NCBI GenBank assembly: GCA_932294295.1
Contig: OW028586.1
Location: forward strand, 8,957,701-9,021,700
Reading direction: 5' to 3'
Length of the DNA stretch: 64,000 nt
From: Alitta virens
Taxonomy: Eukaryota > Annelida > Polychaeta > Phyllodocida > Nereididae
Made by a program: the position numbers and the translations under genes. The notes below the pieces were generated by a model. That model had not been told where the DNA came from, made no database searches, and saw only the letters and a program-made list of their open reading frames with translations. Shown in pieces: positions 7,778 through 64,000 of this stretch; the stretch's first letter is position 1, and each line of letters begins with the position of its first letter.

Positions 7778-8166
7778 ACGATTCGCTGTGAAGCGGTGTT
7801 CGAGATGTCACTTGGCCATTTCCGCCAACGAACTGGTGATGCGCGCGCGGGAGCACGTGTTCCACATCGGCTGCTTCACGTGCGCGTCATGCGCGAAAGC
7901 CCTCACGACCGGCGACTACTTCGGAATGAAGGACCACTTAATTTACTGCCGATCACATTACGAACACTTAATGCAAGGACCATTTATTGGATCTCCCCCT
8001 CCCATGTCCCACGGCCTCATGTCCCCGTGCCTATCCCCCGGCCCCCATGGGTCCCACCCCGGCCCCCCTCCCATGCCATTTTATAACGGAGTGGGAACGA
8101 CACAGAAAGGTCGCCCCCGGAAACGGAAGTCACCTATGCCCGAATCAGATCCCTGCCTAGCTCTGG
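7778..8166 (+). CDS. Lhx2/9: Lhx2/9 LIM-homeobox gene, LIM2 exon
   Basis: This internal exon encodes the second LIM domain and linker of a LIM-homeodomain transcription factor of the Lhx2/9 (apterous) class, a nuclear regulator of eye, forebrain and appendage development in animals. It opens after a pyrimidine-rich acceptor ending in tttgcag. Its first base completes a split Arg codon, then RFAVKRCSRCH follows. All LIM2 zinc ligands are visible: CSRC, the His-x2-Cys of FHIGC, CASC, and the final CRSH. A Pro/Gly-rich linker follows, then the basic KGRPRKRK motif typical of this class. The exon ends CTCTGG before gtaagt, splitting a Gly codon. That phase matches the homeodomain exon 29 kb downstream. 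LIM domains recruit LDB/Chip cofactors. The preceding LIM1 and N-terminal exons are not in the window, so the gene is partial at its 5' side. Confidence 0.96.
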
Positions 8167-9060
8167 GTAAGTCTCTTCGTAATATACCATAATCATTACC
8201 AGTTTTTATCATTATTACCCGTTTTTATCATTGTTACCAGTTTTTTTTTTTTTAAATATACACATTGTCCCTTAGTATATATATATTGGTTGGCTATTAT
8301 TTGGTATGCATTGCAGTATTTAGAGTGTTTAGAAACGTGATTTTTACGTACCAATTATTGTATGCCATTTGCCATGGCCCATAAAGCAATATATTATACA
8401 ATCACTGTGTTTATATTACAAAAACTCCCCGAAATATGCAGCTGTCATTGAAATTTTCTTCATTTTTCTCATTATAGATGACTGTTCCATCTACTTCTGT
8501 AAGTCCTGAAATTTTTATAATTTTTTTCTTTGGTATATGGAGACATTTCCTGACTCATCATAGAATGCTCACCTATCAAAGCTTTATAGGTCATATTAAC
8601 AATATGTAGCTATTAGAAGAAGAAGAAGAAAAAAAACCCCTTGAAAGGGCCTTATTGCATTGCTAAAACTTTTTGTTGTACTCTCTAAATACTTTTTATT
8701 TATGTCATTATTTCATTGTACATTTTCAACTGTTTGTCTGTAAGTGTCATCCAATGTGGCCATATACACTCCATATTGCACTTGATGGATGATAAAAACG
8801 TTGAACACTTTTGAAAAATAATATAAAGAGGAAACTATTAATAAAACGATGTAGGCCTAAGCATTTAATTCTTTGATTGAAATTGATTCTTGGTATCAGT
8901 ACATCTGCTTTTAATTCAAATGAAAATCACTCGAAATACACTGAGATTTGACTGCATCTGCGAGTGATTAGCACTCCTTGTTATTCGAGTGAGCTCTCTG
9001 TTTTCAATGAAGTGAAATTTTGCCACTTTGTGGACGAATGTCGACAGGGTTCAGTATGGG
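8167..9060. other. Intron 29-kb part 1: nothing distinctive
   Basis: AT-rich, with a short (GAA)n run at 8615-8630. No coding or motif signal that I trust. Confidence 0.5.
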
Positions 9061-47012: not shown

Positions 47013-47223
47013 AAAAGTTTAACTTCTGTTCACTTTTATTTCTATGAATGAGTAAAGCTGTACTTTCTTATCCACTATATTCTATGGTAACAGAAATGTT
47101 TTTCATTTGTAGGTTTCCTATATAAGGCCTACCTGAAAGTGGGATATCATGACGCCTAAGATTTTATTTGATACATGAAGTGATACTCCGAAAAATGCAT
47201 TTTATTACCAGAACATGTAACAG

Positions 47224-48803
47224 TGGTTCCATATAGCCAACGGGATCACATTGCATCCCCGGGATTTCCAAAATGCTGCACTCCTGTTAAATTTCTGCTC
47301 CAGAAGAAGGATAGATACCCGGATGACAGAAAATATTGGAAAATAAGGTTTACAGATTTTAACATCCCTACATCAAGCCAGTTGACGATCTATGGTGTAT
47401 CTGGTTACGGGGCATCAAAGTATGAAATTCCTCTTTCGTGGTATTTCATGGAGGATTATCGATGTCCGGGTATATCTGCATGGTCCGAGGAGATTTTGAT
47501 TGAATTTCGTCCTCCACCTGATAAAATAATGGCTAATGGTGCTTCTCGTGATAAGAAATACACAGGATTTAAAGCAGAATATTGGCTGGATAATTATGAT
47601 TGGGAGAGAGATGAGATAATTCATGATTGTCCTCAAACAGAAGATGTTGCAAAAGACCGCAAGGTAGCGGTTGGTTTCGTGAAAGATGGTCGGCTAGATC
47701 CGAAACGTTATAGGAGGAACTGTATGTGGCAACTGAAACCAGTACCTGCTAGAGACATGCATATTTATGCCCGAATCGACCTCTTATCGGGCAATCGTAC
47801 AACCTTCAATGTCTACAAAGGAGCTAGATGTGTTGGTCCGAAGCTGACTTCATTGTCAAGTGTACTGCAAGGTCGAACTTTCACCTCCAAAGAAGGCCTT
47901 TGTATAGAGATGTTAGCACCACTTGAAGGTACCAGGTTTCAGATGGCTTATGGTGTGTACAAGTCATATTCTGTATTCGGTGCTGACTGTGCATTGAAGT
48001 TCAAAGATGTGGATGGTGCGGTTCTTGAAGTCAAAGGATACAACTGTGATGAGGCAGGTGATGATGCTTTTTGTATCCCACATGGAAACCGGTGTGATGG
48101 TATTGAAGACTGTCCATCTGGTAAAGATGAGGCACCAGAGCAGTGTAATACAGAAAAGCCTTGTGGGTTGTCCAAACAATGCGAAGATGGCACATGTGTC
48201 TCAGTTGGTGAGGATTGTCCAGATATTTGTCCAGCTTCTCTCTTATTCAATTGTGGTGATGCCTGTGAGCGAGCAGGAGTTCGGTGCAATGTTTACGTTG
48301 ACTGTTCCAATGGTTCGGATGAACAAGGCTGTACATTTTGGGACTATTTGAAGGGAGAGCTGGGCCATTTCTTTGGCTTTCTGAGTATTATGTTATTCAT
48401 ATTTTGTATACTGTGTTTGAAAAATTTGTACCATCGATGTATATCTAAAGGAAGACTGCACAGTGATGTTGATAATGAAGATGGAGACCGAACGGCCACT
48501 TATGCTGCAGGATGTACTCCAACACATGCAGATAACTACTCATTAGAAACTGCAACAGCCAATGCAAGCCAACTAAATCAACAGGATTCCCTGGAAATGA
48601 AGGACGAAACAGAACCCTCTCCATCTGCCCTTTCCATCCCTTTGCTTGACCCGCCTTCATCTCTGCCCGCTGCACCTCGTGAAAATTTGTCTCCTCCGTC
48701 ATATGGGGAAGTCATGAAACATGAAGATGCATACCCACCATTAAATGAACCAGTTCATAAGCCTCCCCCATCTGTATCAAATGCTAAGGATAAGCCTTTT
48801 TGA
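47224..48803 (+). CDS. CUB/LDLa transmembrane receptor with PPxY tail (LRP3/10/12-like), large terminal exon
   Basis: One exon of about 526 codons follows the acceptor gtaacag. The open frame has no ATG near its start; the signal peptide and first CUB cysteine must lie on an upstream exon I could not find. Residues about 5-120 match a CUB domain start (SPGFP) and about 135-250 a second CUB-like unit. Cys-rich LDLa repeats follow near residues 275-309 (Cys spacing ending DGIEDCPSGKDE) and 336-371 (ending DCSNGSDEQGC). A hydrophobic helix spans about 382-402. The cytoplasmic tail is rich in Pro/Ser and carries PPSY near residue 491, a PPxY motif that in this receptor group can bind WW-domain ubiquitin ligases. 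CUB plus LDLa plus PPxY fits LRP3/LRP10/LRP12-type endocytic receptors. The stop is TGA. The exact family member is not certain. Confidence 0.85.
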
Positions 48804-55664: not shown

Positions 55665-57528
55665 ACCTCATTACCAGATATAAAAATTCATGTGAATTTT
55701 AAGCTACATGTTGAGTGTGGTAAATGGATGTTACAGTAATAGAAAGAGCCCCAAGGATTCCTGCCCTGAATGTTTCCTTGATTGGGAAGTGACATTATTT
55801 TTTTTATTCATTATAATCTCCTCCAAATTTAGACGCATTGTAGGCGTTGTAGTAATAAAAACGCTTGCAGCTTCTGCAAAAATTTCAAGCCGGTTAAGTG
55901 ACACTGAGAATTTTATTAACACCCTTACGATAAATGTAATGCTGCACATTTTTAAATGAGCGTCGTCATCCTAGACATCATTTGGTGCTGCTGAATCATG
56001 TCACACTTCCAGGCAGTCACTATTTTATTATTATTTACGTTTATTCATAATTATTTTTCACTCAGCTTTGATGTCTTTTCAGCTTCTGATCATGAACAGA
56101 TGCAGATGAATTTGAGTCAGATATCTAGTAAAAATTATCTTAATTTATATTCTAAACAACAAGGGTCCTTACTGCTCATAGGAATGAATGGCAAGAAAGG
56201 TCATGTGACATCAAAGCATACCCCACAGCATAAGGCTTTGAAAGTTATGACCAGGGAGCTTTTCTTATTCTTTTCTTTACCAATGAGTGATGGACATGGA
56301 TGTCACCATTGCCTTAAGATGCATGATGCTCCTTTGGATGACATTTAAGATACATCACAAATATATTTACTGGCTGCCCTCTAGAGTATTTTGCAAGGTC
56401 GACCACTTCATAGCAGCGATATTATAGCAAACAATGAAATATCTTAGTCTTTCAAAGTGCCTCTGCCACGTCATATTAGTTGGTATTGTTTGATTTACGC
56501 CGTAAGAGACCATTGAATATCTCCAGCCTACCTTGACTGTTTATAAAACAGAGCAATCAACACTTTAGGATAATCTCTCTGTTGGTCAAAACCCAGGGCT
56601 GACTGAGCAAATTCAAGAGCTTTTAGACAGTTGGTTTACTTTTTAAAAACAAAACAAAGCAATGATCTACATCACATGAGGACTATGTCAGAAGTAATTT
56701 TCAGTTCTTCCCAAATCATTTTGTCATGTTTTTTTTATGCCTTTCCCAATTTATGAACATCAATTATTATTTGTTTGTGATGTATCTAACAGGTCATTTG
56801 ATCCTTAGTACATTTTAATATTATACGCCATAAATATAACAATATTATATTACATATATTTGTACAAATATTCAGATAATCATTGCATTTCTGTGACTTA
56901 ATATCTTACAAAACAGCTTACCTCTTTTTTAACACAGTAGGAGCATTCAAAATCCACATATCATGACATGGTTCACTTACTTCTGCACAGCTCCTAAAGC
57001 ACAGTTTATTTATACTTGTCTGGTACATAATTGAAAAGCCTAAAACCATTCGAAAGAGTACAATAATCAAGGAAGCTTGAATACTGATTGTCGAACTTTT
57101 TCCTGATTTTCCATGGTTTGCGTAAAATATTAAAAACCTTAATTCTCAGAAGGGTTTACATACATTTGGTGGGCAACCGAACATTTAGAAGTAACCCTTT
57201 AAAGCAGATATTAATTATTATTATTAGACAAGATTTCATAGACCTTGCCTCTGAATGAATTTAGATCCAAAAAAAGGAATATTGTGTACGTAAAATATAC
57301 AATTCTTTTGAACACATTAAAATACCATGCAAAAAGATGCAAAGAAAACTAAAGAAGGGTTTTTACGGAATGTGATCACAAATAAAATTTGGTGTTGATA
57401 AAATAAGATAAGATAAGATAAGCACATTGAAAAATAAAACATTTATACTACTGTAAGTAGGTGAACGAGGGCCTCCCTTCACGCCCTACTGGGCACCTGT
57501 GGAGGCATGAAAAAGGGGCGTGACTAAT
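55665..57528. other. Gene-free
   Basis: Repeat family C copy 2 at 56430-56530 and (AGATAA)n at 57399-57423. An open frame at 55998-56348 (+) has a hydrophobic start but no other support. 57455-57525 holds GC-richer sequence with GGGCGTGA and TCACGCCC arms. Confidence 0.45.
56430..56530 (+). repeat. Dispersed repeat family C, copy 2
   Basis: AGCAAACAATG, then AGTCTTTCAAAGTGCCTCTG and CCACGTCATATTAGTTGG. It diverges from copy 1 at the ends. Confidence 0.55.
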
Positions 57529-57785
57529 ATTGTTACATAATTAGTTAATGATCCTAATTATTTTCTTTTGATATTCATAAACGGTTATATAACCATATCA
57601 GTGATAATTAAATCGTTACATAAGTTCATTAATGATCATAATTATTTTCTTTTGATATCCGTAAACTGTTACATTGTTCATAATTAATATTACATAACCT
57701 TTTACATACCTCGTTAATGGTCGTCAGTTAACATTACATAACACATACATAACTCATTAATGGTCATAATATTTTTCTTTGTGCA
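57529..57785. repeat. AT-rich degenerate tandem repeat, three to four units
   Basis: Units of 50-90 bp each carry (G/A)TTACATAA, then GTTAATGATC or CATTAATGGTC and TAATTATTTTCTTTTGATAT. The 12-bp palindrome GGTTATATAACC is at 57583-57594. The block sits at the left edge of the small-gene island. Confidence 0.7.
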
Positions 57786-58180
57786 AAGTCGCCCATAATT
57801 AAGTTCACACCTTCCCTCCTCCTAAAAACCCCATAATCATCCTCCCTCTGACCCCCCCAAACACTACTGATATGCATCAATACATATCTGACATTGACTC
57901 ATCATAAATTCACAATGACTACTGTTACACATCAATGCCGATACAGTTTCACAAGTTTTTGTGTCGTCTCAGTACACACAGTTCAGAGAACATGTCAAGA
58001 CATGTATACCATACGTCTGTGTCCTGTGGGGATTATGGATACATCATGATCTCGCAATGTTTTATTACACACCTACCCTGCTCATAAAATGGGGTGTGGG
58101 GGTGGTAGGTGGGCGTGGTATGTATACCTTATGACAAATAATAGAATGGTACCCTTTATCGTCCTATTACATAACTGTTC
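57786..58180. other. Leader region left of the first small gene
   Basis: C-rich and then mixed sequence with a hairpin-like pair near 58073-58113 (CACCTACCC and GGGTGGTAGGTG). No coding signal. Confidence 0.4.
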
Positions 58181-58191
58181 ATATATATAAG
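58181..58191 (+). promoter_or_regulatory. TATA box of the RING-like gene at 58.2 kb
   Basis: ATATATATAAG lies 17-27 bases before the first ATG of the following gene. A start about 30 bases downstream of the TATA would fall near 58214, so the second ATG (58226) or the third (58268) may be the real initiator. Confidence 0.5.
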
Positions 58192-58207
58192 TAAGCCAAC
58201 TGTACAC

Positions 58208-58690
58208 ATGACACATTACACAGTCATGCTCTCCCTATTAATTCTACTGGATCAGGTGGTTAGAGCTATGAGAGTCTCAAGAAAATGTCAGCTCTGTAAA
58301 CAACTATCAGCGAGATTTACATACTCATGTTGCTACATACAGAACGATAGAAGGATGTATAACTGTCATAGCTGTCTTCAGAAAAACATAATCCGAGACA
58401 TCACCCTGGCAGTACTTGATCTTAAACTCGAGCCTGAAAAGCAGGTGAGCTGTCCTCTATGTAAAACAAAGGATATAAGAATCATTAACCTTCAAGGACA
58501 ATATCGGGATATTGCATCTATGGTACTGGTCAGCCAGATAACCATGTCGGCTCGGTTTGCATGTTTATTCCTCGAAGACACTGTAGAACAGATGAATACA
58601 CGTCAGCTCAACCGCACGCATGAACTATTTGCCACAGTCTTGAGACCATTACAGGAAATTTTACATATTACAGACGAATCACTGTTTTAA
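58208..58690 (+). CDS. Cys-rich RING-like zinc-binding protein, intronless
   Basis: 160 codons from the first ATG. Cysteines are spaced C-x2-C-x10-C-C-x10-C-x2-C-x25-C-x2-C, a RING/treble-clef style zinc pattern in residues about 27-90. RING-like proteins are often ubiquitin ligases, but this spacing is not a textbook RING. The N-terminus carries a short hydrophobic run (LSLLILLDQVV). If translation begins at the third Met, just before the first Cys pair, that leader is absent, and that start matches the broken paralogue on the other strand at 61.3 kb better. The C-terminal third has no motif I recognise. The gene has a TATA box and a poly(A) signal close by. The neighbourhood of small TATA-driven genes suggests a viral or virus-like origin (inference). 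Confidence 0.7.
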   Translation: MTHYTVMLSLLILLDQVVRAMRVSRKCQLCKQLSARFTYSCCYIQNDRRMYNCHSCLQKNIIRDITLAVLDLKLEPEKQVSCPLCKTKDIRIINLQGQYRDIASMVLVSQITMSARFACLFLEDTVEQMNTRQLNRTHELFATVLRPLQEILHITDESLF

Positions 58691-58731
58691 AATGAAAATG
58701 ACTGTAGCAGCCTTTACTATTGACTTGAAAA

Positions 58732-58737
58732 AATAAA
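58732..58737 (+). terminator. AATAAA poly(A) signal of the RING-like gene
   Basis: Canonical hexamer 42 bases after the TAA stop, followed by T/G-rich sequence (TGCTTGTATTTTTTATG). The transcript is very compact. Confidence 0.6.
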
Positions 58738-59090
58738 ATATTTCAACTCTGCTATGCTTGTATTTTTTATGTCCTGATAGTCGTCGTTCATTATTAACAC
58801 ACGTCAATATATTAGTCTATTAGTCGTGAGGGCTAAAGGCGTGACTATAGAGGCCTCCCAATGGCGTATCTGTATGACATACTACATGTTCAAAATTTTG
58901 GTACTGATTCTGGTTACCTATATTTTCTATAAATCAAGAACAAGACATATTTACAAGTTTATCATAAAATATTTTCAGCTTAAAATTACAACAAAAAAAA
59001 ATCCATGAAACCATACATTACATAATTACTTAGGATGTTTTCACCGACAAACTGATATATAAACACTATCATAAATTTCAACATAATTAG
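58738..59090. other. Gap between the RING-like gene and the spliced membrane-protein gene
   Basis: AT-rich. A 60-codon open frame at 58826-59008 (+) contains a hydrophobic stretch and a basic tail, but it has no start context or homology that I can support. The word ATTACATAA occurs near 59017. Confidence 0.4.
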
Positions 59091-59094
59091 TTCA

Positions 59095-59279
59095 TCACTC
59101 ACCCCTGATACAGAGGATAACTGCCACTAGCACAGTCACTGTGGATCCTATCGCTGCAGGGATGATCAGCTTCAGGGGGGATCTACCTCTTGACATCCTG
59201 ACAGTTGTCGTCTTAGGCGGGTCGGTGGTGGGCAGATCGCTGTCGGTGATGAGTCGTTTGGTGGTGAGGGTGGCCTCTG
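59095..59279 (-). pseudogene. Out-of-frame stalk plus transmembrane segment downstream of the secreted-protein gene
   Basis: On the minus strand this open stretch reads Thr-rich (TTTEATLTTKR), then a helix-like hydrophobic run (LIIPAAIGSTVTVLVAVILC) followed by Arg, as in a single-pass membrane anchor. It then meets AGG|gtgagt, a consensus splice donor. It is not in frame with the preceding exon, and TGA codons lie between. It may be a separate exon joined by a splice I cannot place, or the relic of a frameshifted C-terminus. Confidence 0.4.
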
Positions 59280-59291
59280 TTGTTGTGGCCT

Positions 59292-60035
59292 TTAGTGGTC
59301 ATCAGTCTCAGTAGGAGGGGGGGGGGTATCCTTACTCTCGGGCGTTGATGGTCTCAAAGGGAAGTTCACAATCCTTCCTGACTGGAAAGTAATCTTCAGA
59401 GATACTGTGCTTCCTGACAGCTGGTCTAGCACCTCCTCCTCATAGCGTGTGTAAAATCTGGAATTAATTGTCATAAGTGTTCATTGTCTACACTTGCTTG
59501 GTAATAAAGCTCTGTTTAATAAATATGCCATTATGTCTCTTTTGATGACCTCCTACTCGTTAAGTCATAAACAAGATGCATAGGGGCTCTGTGTCACTAT
59601 ATATATTTATTAAAGATATCTCTCAGTAAGTCATAACAAAAAGATGCATAGGGGATGCATGTTACTAAATATATATATTAAAGAAGCCTCGGCGCATAAC
59701 TATCTCAGTTAGTCTGCGTCTTGTATACTGGTAAGAAGTTTGATACTATTTATTGACAATTTTTACATATTAATGCTGGACTTATTAGTATTACCGCTGT
59801 TAACAGACTCTATCTAAATCATGTTCAACTTATTTAAAAAAATATATATATATACCAGACACTCATCATAAAGGCTATAAGGAAAGTTAACTTACCTAAT
59901 CTCGTCAATGGTGTCTAGGTCCAGATACCTGACATCATCAACATCGTCATCACTACAGATGAGTACTCCTGGTACTTCCTGACGACATGCAAGAACACAT
60001 GAAAGGATAAGCATCCTCAGCATCATGGCAGTCAT
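59292..60035 (-). CDS. Small secreted or membrane protein, two exons, spliced
   Basis: Exon 1 (60035-59896) starts with ATG and a hydrophobic leader (MMLRMLILSCVLAC) typical of a signal peptide, then an acidic Asp-rich stretch. It ends at the consensus donor AG|gtaagt. Exon 2 (59457-59292) begins after ttccag and completes the split Arg codon in frame. It ends with a Pro/Thr-rich tail and TAA, giving 101 residues. The intron is 438 bp. Just past the stop, in another frame, lies a Thr-rich stretch and a hydrophobic segment (see 59095-59279). The original protein may therefore have been a type I membrane protein whose frame changed at the ten-C run in exon 2, or further exons may exist. The family is not recognised. 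A TATA box lies 105-112 bases upstream of the ATG. Confidence 0.55.
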
Positions 60036-60139
60036 CGTGATAATTCCTTAGGTAGTGTTATTATGTTTCCTTGCTAGTAGATATTATTCCCATCGTAGTC
60101 TATAGTGATATGACCATTCTCTGACTGCTGACAGTTTCA

Positions 60140-60147
60140 TATTTATA
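60140..60147 (-). promoter_or_regulatory. TATA box (TATAAATA) of the secreted-protein gene
   Basis: A perfect TATAAATA on the minus strand, 105 bases before the ATG at 60035. The expected start is near 60115, leaving an 80-base leader. Confidence 0.5.
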
Positions 60148-60960
60148 CAGAAATACTATTTGTTATATCAGTGTCATCAAAATGTATTACTTACTACATA
60201 CATATGTTTGTTTGACATCTGGGACAATTATTAACCCCCTATGATACATCGATCTATTGAAATGTACGTCGATGATTATGTAATGTGTAGAGGTACATAT
60301 GTACTAAACCCTCAAGACTCTTTAAAGTATTGACCGATGACTGATTACGTAATGCTCTGTTCTCATCGGGGGTTAAGCGTGTCATAAGGTTACTAAAGAT
60401 CACACCATACTTCAGAGTGTATCTTAAAGACACCTGCTTTCGCCCCTAACTCATTGCCTTCAGGCTTAACTATCTACAAAGTTGTTTTATTACTGTATTG
60501 TGTAAATTTTTCATGAATAGATCATAGGTAACGGTCTTTTAAAGTAGTCTGTATTTCTCCTAAAGGCTTGGTAGTTAATACGTACTAGCGTAAACTTTTC
60601 AGCTGCTCTATATTTTAATAGAAGGTGTTATTACTACCATATTACTTTAATTAAATTAATCAAAAACAAATAAAACATCTGTACTCTCTTTTAATATTAC
60701 AACTTCAGTAATACAGCAAAAATAGGTCAGTTTTAAAACACAGTAAAGTATATACAGTATTAATGGACATTGGTAATGTATAGAGTGGCGAATAAATATA
60801 TTATCAGACAATTTTAAGCTGTATTTACAGTTAAAAAGTTCATGGTTAGCGTCTTTGTGGGACAGCTCTTGTGGTTCATCTGTGTTCATTATTCAGTAGT
60901 CGTGTCAGCGGTAGAAGAACTTCCTCAGTCAGTCTTCTTCTCTGCAGAAGCAATTGACCG
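60148..60960. other. AT-rich gap inside the gene island
   Basis: Open frames at 60656-60889 (-) and 60842-61030 (+) lack support; the latter is antisense to the RING-like relic. Two TTACRTAA-type words occur (60276 and 60344 region). I see no gene. Confidence 0.4.
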
Positions 60961-61323
60961 TTATGATGGGCTCTTAAATTTTCTCTCAAGATCTCCCTCT
61001 CCTCCAAGAAATGGTCTTTCGTCAGTTTGATAAGCGTGATTGATGAAGTCCTCAATCGCGAATTCCCCGTAGCCAGTTATATCGTAGATCATGTCGTAGT
61101 TCTGTCGGCAGAATGGACATGGTATCTTGTAATTTTGTGACAGATCGACAGGTCGATTTTCAACGATTTCCATAATGAGCTTACGCATGACTAAGGATTC
61201 GATGCAATCCCTTCATAGCCTCATTTCCTCGTTTCTAAAGCAGCATTTGAAGCTGTACCGAGATGGTAACTCGCAGCAGAGTTGACAAGGATTCTCGTCC
61301 ATATTCAGTAATGTGGTGGCCAT
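60961..61323 (-). pseudogene. RING-like paralogue interrupted by an in-frame TGA
   Basis: The frame runs from ATG at 61323 to TAA at 60961 (120 codons) with one in-frame TGA at 61215-61213 (codon 37). The cysteine plan matches the gene at 58.2 kb: C-x2-C-x10-C-C, then a C-x2-C pair, then C-x2-C 28 residues later. The TGA sits exactly where the first Cys of the middle pair belongs, so it replaces a predicted zinc ligand. After the stop the frame continues undisturbed for 83 codons with no other damage, which points to a recent lesion, a sequencing error, or recoding. A downstream Met at 61188 could start only the C-terminal part. The sequence identity with the paralogue is low outside the Cys frame. 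The role is unknown; it is RING-like by cysteine pattern only. Confidence 0.6.
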
Positions 61324-61430
61324 TTTCAACTTGTATGTGTGTCTGTAGCTTAATAAAAACTAACTGGCATCTGGAGGCTGAACAATGAGTATTGCTTCGG
61401 TCCTTCAGGCTAATCTCACACTTTCCTGTA

Positions 61431-61437
61431 TTATATA
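61431..61437 (-). promoter_or_regulatory. TATA box (TATATAA) of the broken RING-like gene
   Basis: GGGTATATAATACAGG on the minus strand, 108 bases before the ATG at 61323. The promoter looks intact although the coding frame carries a stop. Confidence 0.5.
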
Positions 61438-61538
61438 CCCAATCAAACGGAGACTGGGGGAAACTCTCCCTTAAATTTAAGGCCCTTCCTTCAGAGACCC
61501 TCTGCAGCCATTCTGATCACTGACCTCTGCCAGATCAA

Positions 61539-61544
61539 TATAAA
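61539..61544 (+). promoter_or_regulatory. TATA box (TATAAA) of the BECR-like gene
   Basis: TATAAA 35 bases before the first ATG (61574) and 50 bases before the second (61589). The expected start is around 61570. The second ATG is therefore at least as likely to be used. Confidence 0.5.
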
Positions 61545-61573
61545 CTATCATTTTCGGGACCTTCTGAAAAAAT

Positions 61574-61897
61574 ATGCTTAGTTCAAACATGGAGATCACT
61601 AACAGAGCTTATAAACATATTGAGAGATACCATATCTTAGGTCGCGAAAAAGCATTAGAAAAGTCACAGTTCATGGTCAATCCTACGCGGGAGCAGCTTT
61701 TATCACACTGCAGAAAACTCACAGAAAAGCATCTCGACCCATCTCATGATGGTGGATCTATAAAAAATTATTTTTTATGCCTAGGATACATCGTTGGCTG
61801 GGGTCCGTATCAACAAGAGACTGAATTTATCAAGATATGTATCAAGGGTCGATTCGTTAAGAGCATCTATCCTATTATTCCTCGCAATGAGAAGTAA
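61574..61897 (+). CDS. Small protein resembling BECR/EndoU-type RNase domains
   Basis: 107 codons, intronless, ending TAA. The sequence follows the order seen in many BECR-fold ribonuclease domains (barnase-EndoU-colicin-RelE): an N-terminal helix with His (YKHIERYH), a K-S-x-F strand start (EKSQF), a middle helix, a Gly-rich turn with V-G-W, a strand alternating hydrophobic residues (EFIKICI), and a closing strand ending I-Y-P. The His residues, KS and the last strand would form the active site if the fold is right. This is a pattern judgement without a search, and no toxin partner or immunity gene is recognised. Such domains move between bacteria, phages and eukaryotes. The second Met at residue 6 begins the conserved part. 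Confidence 0.5.
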   Translation: MLSSNMEITNRAYKHIERYHILGREKALEKSQFMVNPTREQLLSHCRKLTEKHLDPSHDGGSIKNYFLCLGYIVGWGPYQQETEFIKICIKGRFVKSIYPIIPRNEK

Positions 61898-62542
61898 AAA
61901 AATTCCAAAGCAGCGTGGGGTGGCCTAGGTTGGTATTTTTTTTTTGTCCATATATATATATATATATACATAGCTGTATACAGCCTTTTTACTACTTTCC
62001 TTATATTATATAATATTTTTACTTGTAGACTCATCATGGAAAACTACACAGACCATCTTTATTAGACCTATTTAGATCTAAATAAATAATTAAAACTAAA
62101 AAATGTCTTATGTTTACATTCTTTCAGTTAAGAGTGGAAGGTCTAACCTCTGTCTATATATACTGATAACTAAAAAGCTCCACACAGCACAGTACTGCTT
62201 CAGCCGGTCTACCTCTGTGTATATATACAGGCCAAACCAATTATTTGTAGTTTTAAGTGCTATCGTGTCTTAACACTTATTTTTAAATAGTGCTCCTAAT
62301 TACCTTCAAACAGATATCAAGATTGTCTGTTATATATCGATAAATAACAGAATTTTGTTAAAATTATAAAAAAAGACTCTGTGGAGTTGTGGGGCAGTTT
62401 TACTTTAAGACTGCCCGATTTAGCCGCTATTTATTGCAGGTAAAAATTTTGAATCTGTTTGAATATTTCTGTGTCGAAAATATTCTAATTATTTCATTTG
62501 TCAAAATTGGTAAAATATACAGAGTTTCGGAATAACATTTTA

Positions 62543-62555
62543 CCGCTAGGTGGCG
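62543..62555 (+). promoter_or_regulatory. CTCF-like site
   Basis: CCGCTAGGTGGCG, 11 of 12 core positions. Shares ACCGCT-A/T-GGTGGCGTCTGA with the word at 29333-29352. Confidence 0.4.
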
Positions 62556-62699
62556 TCTGAGGTCTTCTCGGTTAGAGCCATGACTGGTACTTTTGCGTAA
62601 GTTATATATCATATAATTTCAAACTAGCCGTATGCTGATGGATATATATATATTCTTACTAACTGTACATCCTTAATTTTAATTTTGCTCGTAGTAGGG

Positions 62700-62767
62700 A
62701 AAGCTCTTATTTTACGAAACCATTTTCCCTCCTGCTCCTCTTCGCCTAACACTTCCGGTTGAGTGTC
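62700..62767 (+). promoter_or_regulatory. TATA-less promoter-like segment with ETS motif
   Basis: A pyrimidine-rich run (CCCTCCTGCTCCTCTTCGCC) is followed by ACTTCCGG, an ETS/GABP core, 14 bases before an ATG. This is the style of animal housekeeping promoters and differs from the TATA-type leaders of the neighbouring small genes. Confidence 0.4.
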
Positions 62768-63051
62768 ATGGTGGCGATCAGAACTGTGTGCTGGTGGTTT
62801 ACAACTTCTTCATTACAAATGAACGGTAACTACAAATTTGAAGGTAACTTGAATGATTGTGTAGGCATTTGTCGATATATAGTTTTGGTAAACTTTTTAC
62901 ATATTTTCGTACATACTTTTTTAACTTAAAATGATTACGATGTTTCGAAACTGCATGTATCTGCAGGAAAAGGGTCTGTTTTTATAATATCTTTACAGAT
63001 TCTTCAGATGCCTCTACAACTATGTCTGCGTCGGTGGAGACTAACTTCGAG
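62768..63051 (+). CDS. 5' exons of a spliced gene of unknown function (partial)
   Basis: Exon 1 (62768-62843) starts ATG-GTG-GCG and ends GAA-G before gtaact. Exon 2 (62999-63051) follows the acceptor ctttacag and reads DSSDASTTMSASVETNFE in frame, then the donor gtaatt in phase 0. The combined frame is 43 residues and must continue on exons beyond, perhaps outside the window. I recognise no domain. The PC4-like gene would lie antisense in its next intron. The ETS-type promoter suggests a host gene. Only splice logic and an open frame support it. Confidence 0.35.
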
Positions 63052-63321
63052 GTAATTTGAATATGACGGTTGTATTTGTTATTGTTTTACCGTCTATGTT
63101 AAATTATCTATATTTTGACCTGCTGTTCTTTCTCATGGTATAAGTTCAAACATGGAGATCCTTAACGCTTGTCTGTATACTATGTTTTCCTAAATTAAAA
63201 GAGAGACATAATTTACAAGTCTGCTAAGTTCTACATTAAAACTGATATCTTAGGTGGTTTGAGATATGACAAATGCATGTTTTCAAGTTGAGGTGTTTTT
63301 TTTTTTTAGACAACTGATACA
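63052..63321. other. AT-rich gap with a duplicated start-codon context
   Basis: At 63143-63160 the bases AGTTCAAACATGGAGATC repeat the context of the second ATG of the BECR-like gene (61580-61597). After that the frame closes within 14 codons. A T13-14 run at 63297-63309 lies just past the stop of the PC4-like gene on the other strand. Confidence 0.5.
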
Positions 63322-63747
63322 TTAATTGAAAAATTTTTTATAATCGTTGAGCGTCTCTGTAAGTTGTGTGAACTCGTGCTGTTTCATGTAGAGGCCTCTC
63401 TTGGTGAAACCTTTTTCCTCTTGATGTGGAGGTGTCCATCTCAGCCGAATATCTACGCATCCCTGGGTGACTGATAGTCTTATGTCCTCGGAGAGATCAA
63501 AAAATCTCTCTTCCTCTGCTGCTAAGATCTGTGAAACTTGAGGTATTAGTTGTAGTAGTTTCCTGACATCTCTAACTGATAGGCATACGTATTTTTGTGC
63601 AGGAAATGTTCCATCCAGTACCCTGAGGTTTAGTCTTCTTTGTCCTTGATACTCTGTCAGAGATACTTGGCTGTTCTTGCCAAAATTATGCTTGAAGAGG
63701 GTTGTAGTTGTAGCTGTCATGATGATCAGTCCTGAATAACCATACAT
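63322..63747 (-). CDS. Tandem double PC4-like single-stranded-DNA-binding protein
   Basis: 141 codons from the first ATG. The TATA box lies only 12 bases before that ATG, so the Met at 63720 (132 residues, MTATTTT start) is the likelier initiator. The first unit begins FGKNSQVSLTEYQGQRR, then a strand ending in Arg, a loop with Pro, and an amphipathic helix (SVRDVRKLLQLIPQV): the beta-beta-beta-beta-alpha order of the PC4/p15 coactivator domain. The second unit (LSEDIRLSVTQGCVDIRLRW, then KRGLYMKQHEFTQL) repeats the plan. PC4 works as a dimer on single-stranded DNA, so a single chain with two units would be a built-in pseudo-dimer. This points to a role in viral or host transcription or replication. 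It is intronless, at the right end of the gene island. Confidence 0.65.
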   Translation of the reverse strand: MYGYSGLIIMTATTTTLFKHNFGKNSQVSLTEYQGQRRLNLRVLDGTFPAQKYVCLSVRDVRKLLQLIPQVSQILAAEEERFFDLSEDIRLSVTQGCVDIRLRWTPPHQEEKGFTKRGLYMKQHEFTQLTETLNDYKKFFN

Positions 63748-63758
63748 GAATCTATCCT

Positions 63759-63766
63759 CTTATATA
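63759..63766 (-). promoter_or_regulatory. TATA box (TATATAAG) of the PC4-like gene
   Basis: TATATAAG on the minus strand, 39-46 bases before the ATG at 63720. The same eight bases serve the RING-like gene at 58.2 kb, evidence for a shared promoter style. Confidence 0.55.
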
Positions 63767-63802
63767 TGTATCTACCAGACTAAAGGAGTTTGCTGATTGG
63801 CA

Positions 63803-63987
63803 GATATTTATAGATATGTTACATAACGTCGTGGTTATATTTTTATGGCATCTCTAGTTATGAATATCTTTGTGTTAGTCCTAGGGTGTAGGTATTTATA
63901 GATATGTTATATAACCGCCGTGTTATATTTTTATGTTATATTTGGTTATTTTCGGTTATGAGTATCTTAGTGTGTTAGCCATCGGGG
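63803..63987. repeat. Two AT-rich tandem units of about 90 bp
   Basis: Unit 1 (63803-63890) and unit 2 (63891-63987) both read TATTTATAGATATGTTA-C/T-ATAAC, then GTG-TTATATTTTTATG, then AGTATCTT or AATATCTT and TGTGTTAG. They lie at the right side of the small-gene island and share the GTTAYATAAC word with the repeats on its left side. Confidence 0.75.
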
Positions 63988-64000
63988 GCATTTAATTGGT

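What the first reader, a model, noticed from the sequence alone, without database searches (positions are those of the whole stretch)
57529..63987. Compact island of small TATA-driven genes: probable integrated virus or virus-like mobile element
Seen: five small genes or gene relics in alternating orientation in under 6 kb, each with a good TATA box (58181+, 60140-, 61431-, 61539+, 63759-) 17 to 112 bases before the ATG, two of them using the same TATATAAG. Mostly intronless, with one tight poly(A) signal. The rest of the window is typical gene-poor animal DNA. The proteins (RING-like, PC4-like, RNase-like, signal-peptide protein) are of kinds found in large DNA viruses. Inference: an endogenous DNA virus segment or a large self-synthesising element continuing beyond 64000. 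Against: no capsid, polymerase, integrase or ATPase gene is visible here.
Basis: partly seen in the sequence, partly recalled or inferred. Interest (0 to 1): 0.82.

Follow-up and report, generated by a model that had tools for sequence, protein, structure and literature searches.

The report
Left end of a Polinton virus-transposon
The cluster of small genes is one end of a virus-like jumping element (a Polinton or Maverick) that is present in many, often intact and partly very recent copies in this animal's genome; the copy seen here is itself broken.

Summary
The "island" is the left 6.55 kb of a 17.1-kb Polinton/Maverick that runs about 10.5 kb past the window, with imperfect inverted repeats ending ACTACTG…CAGTAGT and a 6-bp target duplication, ATTTAT. 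Beyond base 64000 lie polymerase, integrase, capsid-like and ATPase-like frames, several broken, so this copy is dead. The genome holds many relatives: 97 near-full-length matches to the RING-like gene at 44% identity or more on 14 contigs, 95 without stops; 45 of 55 scored polymerase places in frames of at least 1,480 aa; five copies at different sites 98.6-99.9% identical over their left 2.7 kb. Eleven genes tested give dN/dS 0.04-0.35 in 43 of 46 comparisons; three were saturated. A relative's capsid model is a double jelly-roll. The island genes form the accessory arm: two RING-like paralogues, a membrane protein, an orphan and a PC4-like protein. Departures from common vertebrate Mavericks: reversed (ACT)2 ends, one-strand core (also in one frog), no Ulp1-type protease found. 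A new family of a known kind, apparently recently active.

The parts
57441..57446 (.). Left copy of the 6-bp target-site duplication ATTTAT
   Evidence: Same six bases follow the right end in L010 553-558
57447..57780 (+). Left terminal inverted repeat, starting ACTACTGTA, with internal repeats and four TTACATAA words
   Evidence: 76-86% identical inverted pieces matching L010 130-554; same start in other copies; words
58182..58191 (+). TATA box of the RING-like gene (TATATAAG at 58184-58191)
   Evidence: TATAWA found upstream of this gene in 6 of 6 other copies
58208..58690 (+). Accessory gene 1: 160-aa RING-like protein with eight invariant cysteines, intact frame
   Evidence: dN/dS 0.10 against a sister copy
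58732..58737 (+). AATAAA poly(A) signal of accessory gene 1
   Evidence: sequence
59098..59474 (-). Accessory gene 2, exon 2, broken in this copy (a 60-aa frame is left at 59292-59474); related frames of 102-228 aa are open in six other copies
59895..60035 (-). Accessory gene 2, exon 1: signal-peptide-like start, frame running to a splice-donor-like GTAAGT
   Evidence: 47-aa frame found in 6 of 6 other copies searched, 53-91% identical; exons not joined
60961..61323 (-). Accessory gene 3: paralogue of gene 1 (RING-like 2), interrupted by an in-frame stop and diverging at its end
   Evidence: paralogy by profile comparison E 3e-13
61574..61897 (+). Accessory gene 4: orphan 107-aa protein, with a TATA box near 61539; its frame ends earlier than in a sister copy
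63322..63747 (-). Accessory gene 5: PC4-like protein, 141 aa, intact frame, TATATAAG near 63759
57447..64000 (.). Left 6,554 bp of the 17,106-bp Polinton; it continues to C14:9032252 (window-equivalent 74552) with polymerase, integrase, penton-like, capsid and ATPase-like genes, several of them broken

Best explanation
This is an integrated, inactivated copy of a Polinton/Maverick (polintovirus), one of a large and partly young population in this animal. Shown: inverted repeats, 6-bp duplication, polymerase and integrase domains, a double-jelly-roll fold for a close relative of its capsid protein, many copies with open frames, low dN/dS in the eleven core and accessory genes tested, and near-identical copies at different sites. 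Inferred: the element copies itself by protein-primed DNA synthesis from its ends (the tandem ACT at each tip suits slide-back initiation, recalled from other protein-primed replicons), inserts with its own integrase, and probably packages its DNA in capsids. Also inferred: the TATA-driven accessory arm acts on the host, with two RING-like proteins on ubiquitin or transcription pathways, a PC4-like protein on transcription or replication, and a signal-peptide/TM protein at membranes.
Against: No Ulp1/adenain-type protease was found among the frames scanned, although Polintons usually carry one. The ATPase matches Pox_A32 and AAA models only below cut-off. The penton assignment rests on size and position, with no Pfam hit. 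Two ends were not pinned in three of the eight copies looked at, and no inverted match was found between the two pieces of the most distant one. No transcription, virion or transposition data exist here. Genome counts come from two answered searches that score only the best candidates.
Confidence: 0.96

Rival explanations
1. The elements are plain self-synthesising transposons that move only inside the genome; capsid genes persist for another reason or are in decline, and no particles are made.
For: No virion data. No maturation protease found. No IMG/VR contig confirmed for the polymerase or the capsid protein. Many copies per genome.
Against: The capsid gene has the lowest dN/dS of the eleven genes tested (0.04-0.08 in 4 comparisons), which is hard to explain unless capsids are used.
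Confidence: 0.3
2. The five genes are ordinary small host genes near a repeat.
For: They are short and TATA-driven, and some host proteins have RING and PC4 domains.
Against: They lie inside the inverted repeats and duplication, recur beside the core genes in the copies compared, and one of them has 97 near-full-length matches on 14 contigs.
Confidence: 0.01
3. The whole population is a fossil: bursts long ago with no present activity.
For: The window copy is broken in most core genes; some matches contain stops or are truncated.
Against: 95 of 97 near-full-length matches to gene 1 have no stop; copies at unrelated sites are up to 99.85% identical over 2.7 kb.
Confidence: 0.1

Closest known systems
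Vertebrate Mavericks (PMC8097293; passages and section 7 seen)
   Same: 6-bp duplications, inverted repeats, 12.7-24.6 kb, pPolB, integrase, major and minor capsid genes, ATPase, accessory regions flanking the core
   Different: Theirs generally have two core modules on different strands (same strand in Xenopus tropicalis), a protease gene, and most often (AGT)2//(ACT)2 ends, with two other end types. Here the core genes lie on one strand, the ends are the reverse, (ACT)2//(AGT)2, and no protease gene was found
Polintons in general (PMC4028283, passages seen; PMC11071308, abstract, outline and passages seen)
   Same: pPolB, RVE integrase, double-jelly-roll capsid protein, ATPase-like gene, 15-20 kb
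   Different: The usual set includes a cysteine protease of the Ulp1 type; RING and PC4 gave no occurrences in these two texts
Capsid-protein relatives in the protein database, including one from the blood clam Tegillarca granosa
   Same: Homologues at 31-37% identity, and nine closer clusters at 55-95%, among the 120 of 325 listed
   Different: Their gene neighbourhoods were not seen
Mavirus and other virophages
   Different: Only about 10% sequence identity; here the copies are chromosomal in an animal

Membership tests
Polinton/Maverick | Protein-primed type family-B DNA polymerase | tested here: met
   Pfam DNA_pol_B_2 7.9e-34 in this copy, 5.6e-47 in a sister copy with a 1,522-aa frame. 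Protein priming itself not tested
Polinton/Maverick | RVE-family integrase | tested here: met
   rve 3.3e-14 and Chromo 2.6e-07 in a sister copy; this copy keeps only the C-terminal part
[quoted passage not shown]
Polinton/Maverick | Minor capsid (penton) protein | tested here: inconclusive
   A conserved frame of about 150 aa lies two genes before the capsid gene, but no Pfam hit and no fold model
Polinton/Maverick | FtsK/A32-type packaging ATPase | tested here: inconclusive
   Walker-like motifs by eye; Pox_A32 and AAA_14 only below cut-off
Polinton/Maverick | Ulp1/adenovirus-type cysteine protease | tested here: inconclusive
   No Pfam protease hit among the frames scanned in the copies examined; a genome search for PF02902 did not complete; a divergent or spliced gene would be missed. 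Not every described Polinton has an identifiable one (figure legend)
Polinton/Maverick | Terminal inverted repeats | tested here: met
   Imperfect, about 335-425 bp with internal repeats, in this copy; inverted matches between the two pieces of other copies, none for the most distant copy
Polinton/Maverick | 6-bp target-site duplication | tested here: met
   5 of 5 copies whose two ends were pinned; three further copies not pinned
Polinton/Maverick | Virions | not testable with these tools
   Needs tissue
Adintoviridae | Adintovirus-specific gene set | not tested
   No reference genomes were compared; an adintovirus protein appears among the fold matches
RING-finger E3 ligases (accessory genes 1 and 3) | Cross-brace zinc ligands and a RING profile match | tested here: inconclusive
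   Eight invariant cysteines in 14 of 14 sequences, but RING models only below cut-off and weak PDB hits
PC4 (accessory gene 5) | PC4 profile match | tested here: met
   7 of 10 family members at E<=1, best 1.1e-11; the window's own copy 0.0063, below cut-off; PDB profile search weak, 0.078

The most novel reading that the evidence does not exclude
A currently active, virion-forming polintovirus lineage of this animal that works without the usual Ulp1-type maturation protease, has its core genes on one strand and reversed (ACT)2 ends, and carries a fast-evolving host-manipulation arm (two RING-like paralogues, PC4-like, an orphan protein and a spliced membrane protein).
Probability: 0.25. Interest if true: 0.65.

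Novelty: new member of a known kind. Interest (0 to 1): 0.42.

Why it matters
Virus particles of Mavericks have not been observed (abstract of PMC8097293 as listed), and most vertebrate copies are degraded. A genome with dozens of copies in open frames, several subfamilies with low dN/dS and copies as little as 0.15% apart over 2.7 kb is a good place to look for particles, expression and insertion polymorphism. The accessory arm, whose proteins differ more between subfamilies than the capsid protein and polymerase do, marks candidate host-interaction genes.

Tried and rejected
A 27,895-bp spacing of three gene-1 copies on C4 looked like a concatemer; it is most simply one element plus flanking satellite-like repeats duplicated as a unit. 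The RNase-like idea for the 107-aa protein: no Pfam or PDB support, only seven relatives in the protein database, and a fold model with pLDDT 42.5 that was not searched further. Relatives in IMG/VR: none confirmed for the polymerase or the capsid alignment. An early guess of a herpes-like virus was dropped, untested, once the polymerase and integrase appeared. The host species was not identified: 671 Mb, 23 contigs; a globin search meant to help did not complete. The motif TTACATAA is frequent in this element but nearly absent (1) from the 36% subfamily copy, so it is not general. Literature: no paper describing these accessory genes in Polintons turned up; these cover only the open PMC library, and the terms were few. 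One search did not list the nematode Maverick study that I recall (Widen et al. 2023); it is cited by name in a passage seen.
Full report
The window is C14:8957701-9021700 of a 671-Mb animal genome in 23 contigs. One search settled the nature of the island: the 160-aa RING-like protein has 151 matches in the same genome (the list was cut). Of the 98 rows I transcribed at 44% identity or more, 97 span at least 140 residues, 95 of these have no stop, and they lie on 14 contigs (C1-C14). By identity to the window protein they fall into classes of 19 (91-100%, the window's own copy included), 13 (82-87%), 31 (66-71%) and 34 (44-50%). Weaker and partial rows were left out of this count. The search scored the best 150 of 263 candidates, so it is a lower bound.

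The right flank was fetched in separate 10-kb pieces. L009 holds, all on the minus strand, a family-B polymerase frame (Pfam DNA_pol_B_2 7.9e-34), a chromodomain integrase remnant, a capsid-like frame and an ATPase-like frame. Left and right ends are inverted copies of each other (pieces 76-86% identical), both with ACTACTG at the tip, and ATTTAT flanks both. The element is therefore window 57447 to C14:9032252, 17,106 bp.

Condition of this copy. The polymerase is spread over six frames. Integrase lacks its first part and is fused to a neighbouring frame. Penton-like and basic genes are each split. The ATPase start is partly duplicated and its frame ends early. The capsid frame is long (415 aa) but lacks its usual start. 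The second RING-like gene has an in-frame stop, and exon 2 of the membrane gene is out of frame. The first RING-like, the 107-aa and the PC4-like genes remain open.

Sister copies. Pieces of seven further copies were read: one each from the 93%, 84%, 70%, 36% and 27% classes and two from the 49% class. Taking the 93% copy as reference, core and accessory genes keep the same order in the others, with these exceptions: the 36% copy shows no match to the 107-aa gene and its polymerase lies in two frames; the 27% copy shows a single RING-like gene and neither a membrane-gene nor a 107-aa match; the two 49% copies have two PC4-like genes. Both ends were pinned in five of the eight copies including the window's, and all five have 6-bp duplications and lengths of 17.1-18.8 kb; in the 36% copy the tip reads ACTACTAT. 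The other three were not pinned: one sits in satellite-like repeats, one has its left end outside the piece, and the most distant gave no inverted match. In one sister copy Pfam finds DNA_pol_B_2 (5.6e-47) in a 1,522-aa frame, and rve (3.3e-14) plus Chromo in a 371-aa frame. Of 55 scored polymerase places (out of 1,865 first-look candidates), 45 lie in frames of at least 1,480 aa, two of which are flagged with an internal stop.

Accessory arm. Genes 1 and 3 are paralogues (profile E 3e-13) with eight cysteines invariant in 14 of 14 sequences, spaced C-x2-C-x10-CC-x10-C-x2-C-x25-C-x2-C in the window protein. That is RING-like, but RING models stay below cut-off. Gene 5 is PC4-like: 7 of 10 members match Pfam PC4, best 1.1e-11. 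Gene 2 has a conserved signal-peptide-like exon in 6 of 6 other copies searched and, in a sister copy, a second frame with a hydrophobic stretch near its end, read by eye. Gene 4 has seven relatives in the database at E<=0.01 and no known domain; its fold model is not usable.

Selection and age. Pairwise Nei-Gojobori dN/dS between one sister copy and others, for eleven genes (ATPase and basic gene not tested, membrane gene exon 2 only), gave 0.04-0.35 in 43 of 46 comparisons; three were saturated in dS. The capsid gene is lowest (0.04-0.08); the first RING-like gene and the membrane gene reach the highest values (0.35 and 0.30). Some frames overlap and several dS values exceed 1, so these numbers are rough. 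Five left ends from five contigs are 98.6-99.9% identical over 2.7 kb, with different flanks.

Control signals. TATA(A/T)A lies within 110 bases of the start of the first RING-like gene in 6 of 6, the 107-aa gene in 3 of 5, the PC4-like gene in 5 of 7 and the polymerase in 4 of 5 copies; the integrase shows it in 3 of 4, inside the preceding frame. It is absent before the second RING-like (0 of 5) and the capsid gene (0 of 4). Random 110-base stretches of the elements hold it in 20%. This suggests two promoter classes. The word TTACATAA occurs 18 times in this 17.1-kb element (8 in the window part, 10 beyond), 12 of them in the end repeats, against 7 times in the other 57.4 kb of the window; it also lies before the polymerase and first RING-like gene. 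The 36% copy has it only once.

Comparison with known kinds. Vertebrate Mavericks generally have two modules on different strands (the same strand in Xenopus tropicalis), a protease gene, and most often (AGT)2//(ACT)2 ends (section 7 of PMC8097293). Here the core is on one strand, the ends are (ACT)2//(AGT)2, and no protease was seen among the frames scanned. The last point is only a sequence-profile negative, and the genome-wide check could not be run. I file the element as a Polinton on polymerase, integrase, capsid fold, inverted repeats and 6-bp duplications, with protease, ATPase and penton left inconclusive.

How it likely works: protein-primed copying from the tandem-triplet ends, integration by its own integrase, and probably packaging in capsids, helped by an arm of host-directed proteins. 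Copying, packaging and host effects are inferred; none was observed.

Noticed in passing
L012-L017 (G000:C4:15745001-15845000): Three copies of the element at exact 27,895-bp spacing beside a satellite-like tandem array; element and array seem duplicated together (or the assembly repeats them).
   Followed up: partly
57533, 57616, 57690, 57734, 58167, 59018, 60276, 63819 and L009/L010: TTACATAA recurs in the element (18 in 17.1 kb against 7 in the other 57.4 kb of the window), 12 in the end repeats; it may be a promoter or replication motif, but the 36% copy has only one.
   Followed up: partly
L018:1374-5942: The polymerase N-terminal part seems to hold two similar OTU-like stretches, only the second with a Cys near the expected place; a published account gives pPolBs one vOTU domain (abstract of PMC11071308). 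Read by eye only.
   Followed up: no
L018:6170-6481 and L014, L020 equivalents: A conserved hydrophobic frame of about 100 aa sits just before the integrase gene; no Pfam match above cut-off.
   Followed up: partly
L018:6450-9586: Integrase, penton-like, basic and capsid frames abut or overlap by a few bases, which suggests one transcript.
   Followed up: no
L023 and L024: Two copies carry two PC4-like genes side by side instead of one.
   Followed up: no
window 47223-48803: A 526-aa open frame with an LDL-receptor class A domain (Pfam 9.8e-06) and, by eye, a hydrophobic stretch: probably a host membrane-protein exon.
   Followed up: partly
window 7788-8192: LIM domain exon (Pfam 4.8e-17), probably a host LIM gene.
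   Followed up: partly
L011:3510-5060: Reverse-transcriptase-like frame (by eye, LINE-like), followed by a long run of N (withheld bases).
   Followed up: no
P0001-P0007, P0128-P0134: Database relatives of accessory genes 1 and 4 come from short unnamed contigs and mirror the same subfamilies, as if this host's or a near relative's DNA were present in metagenome samples.
   Followed up: no
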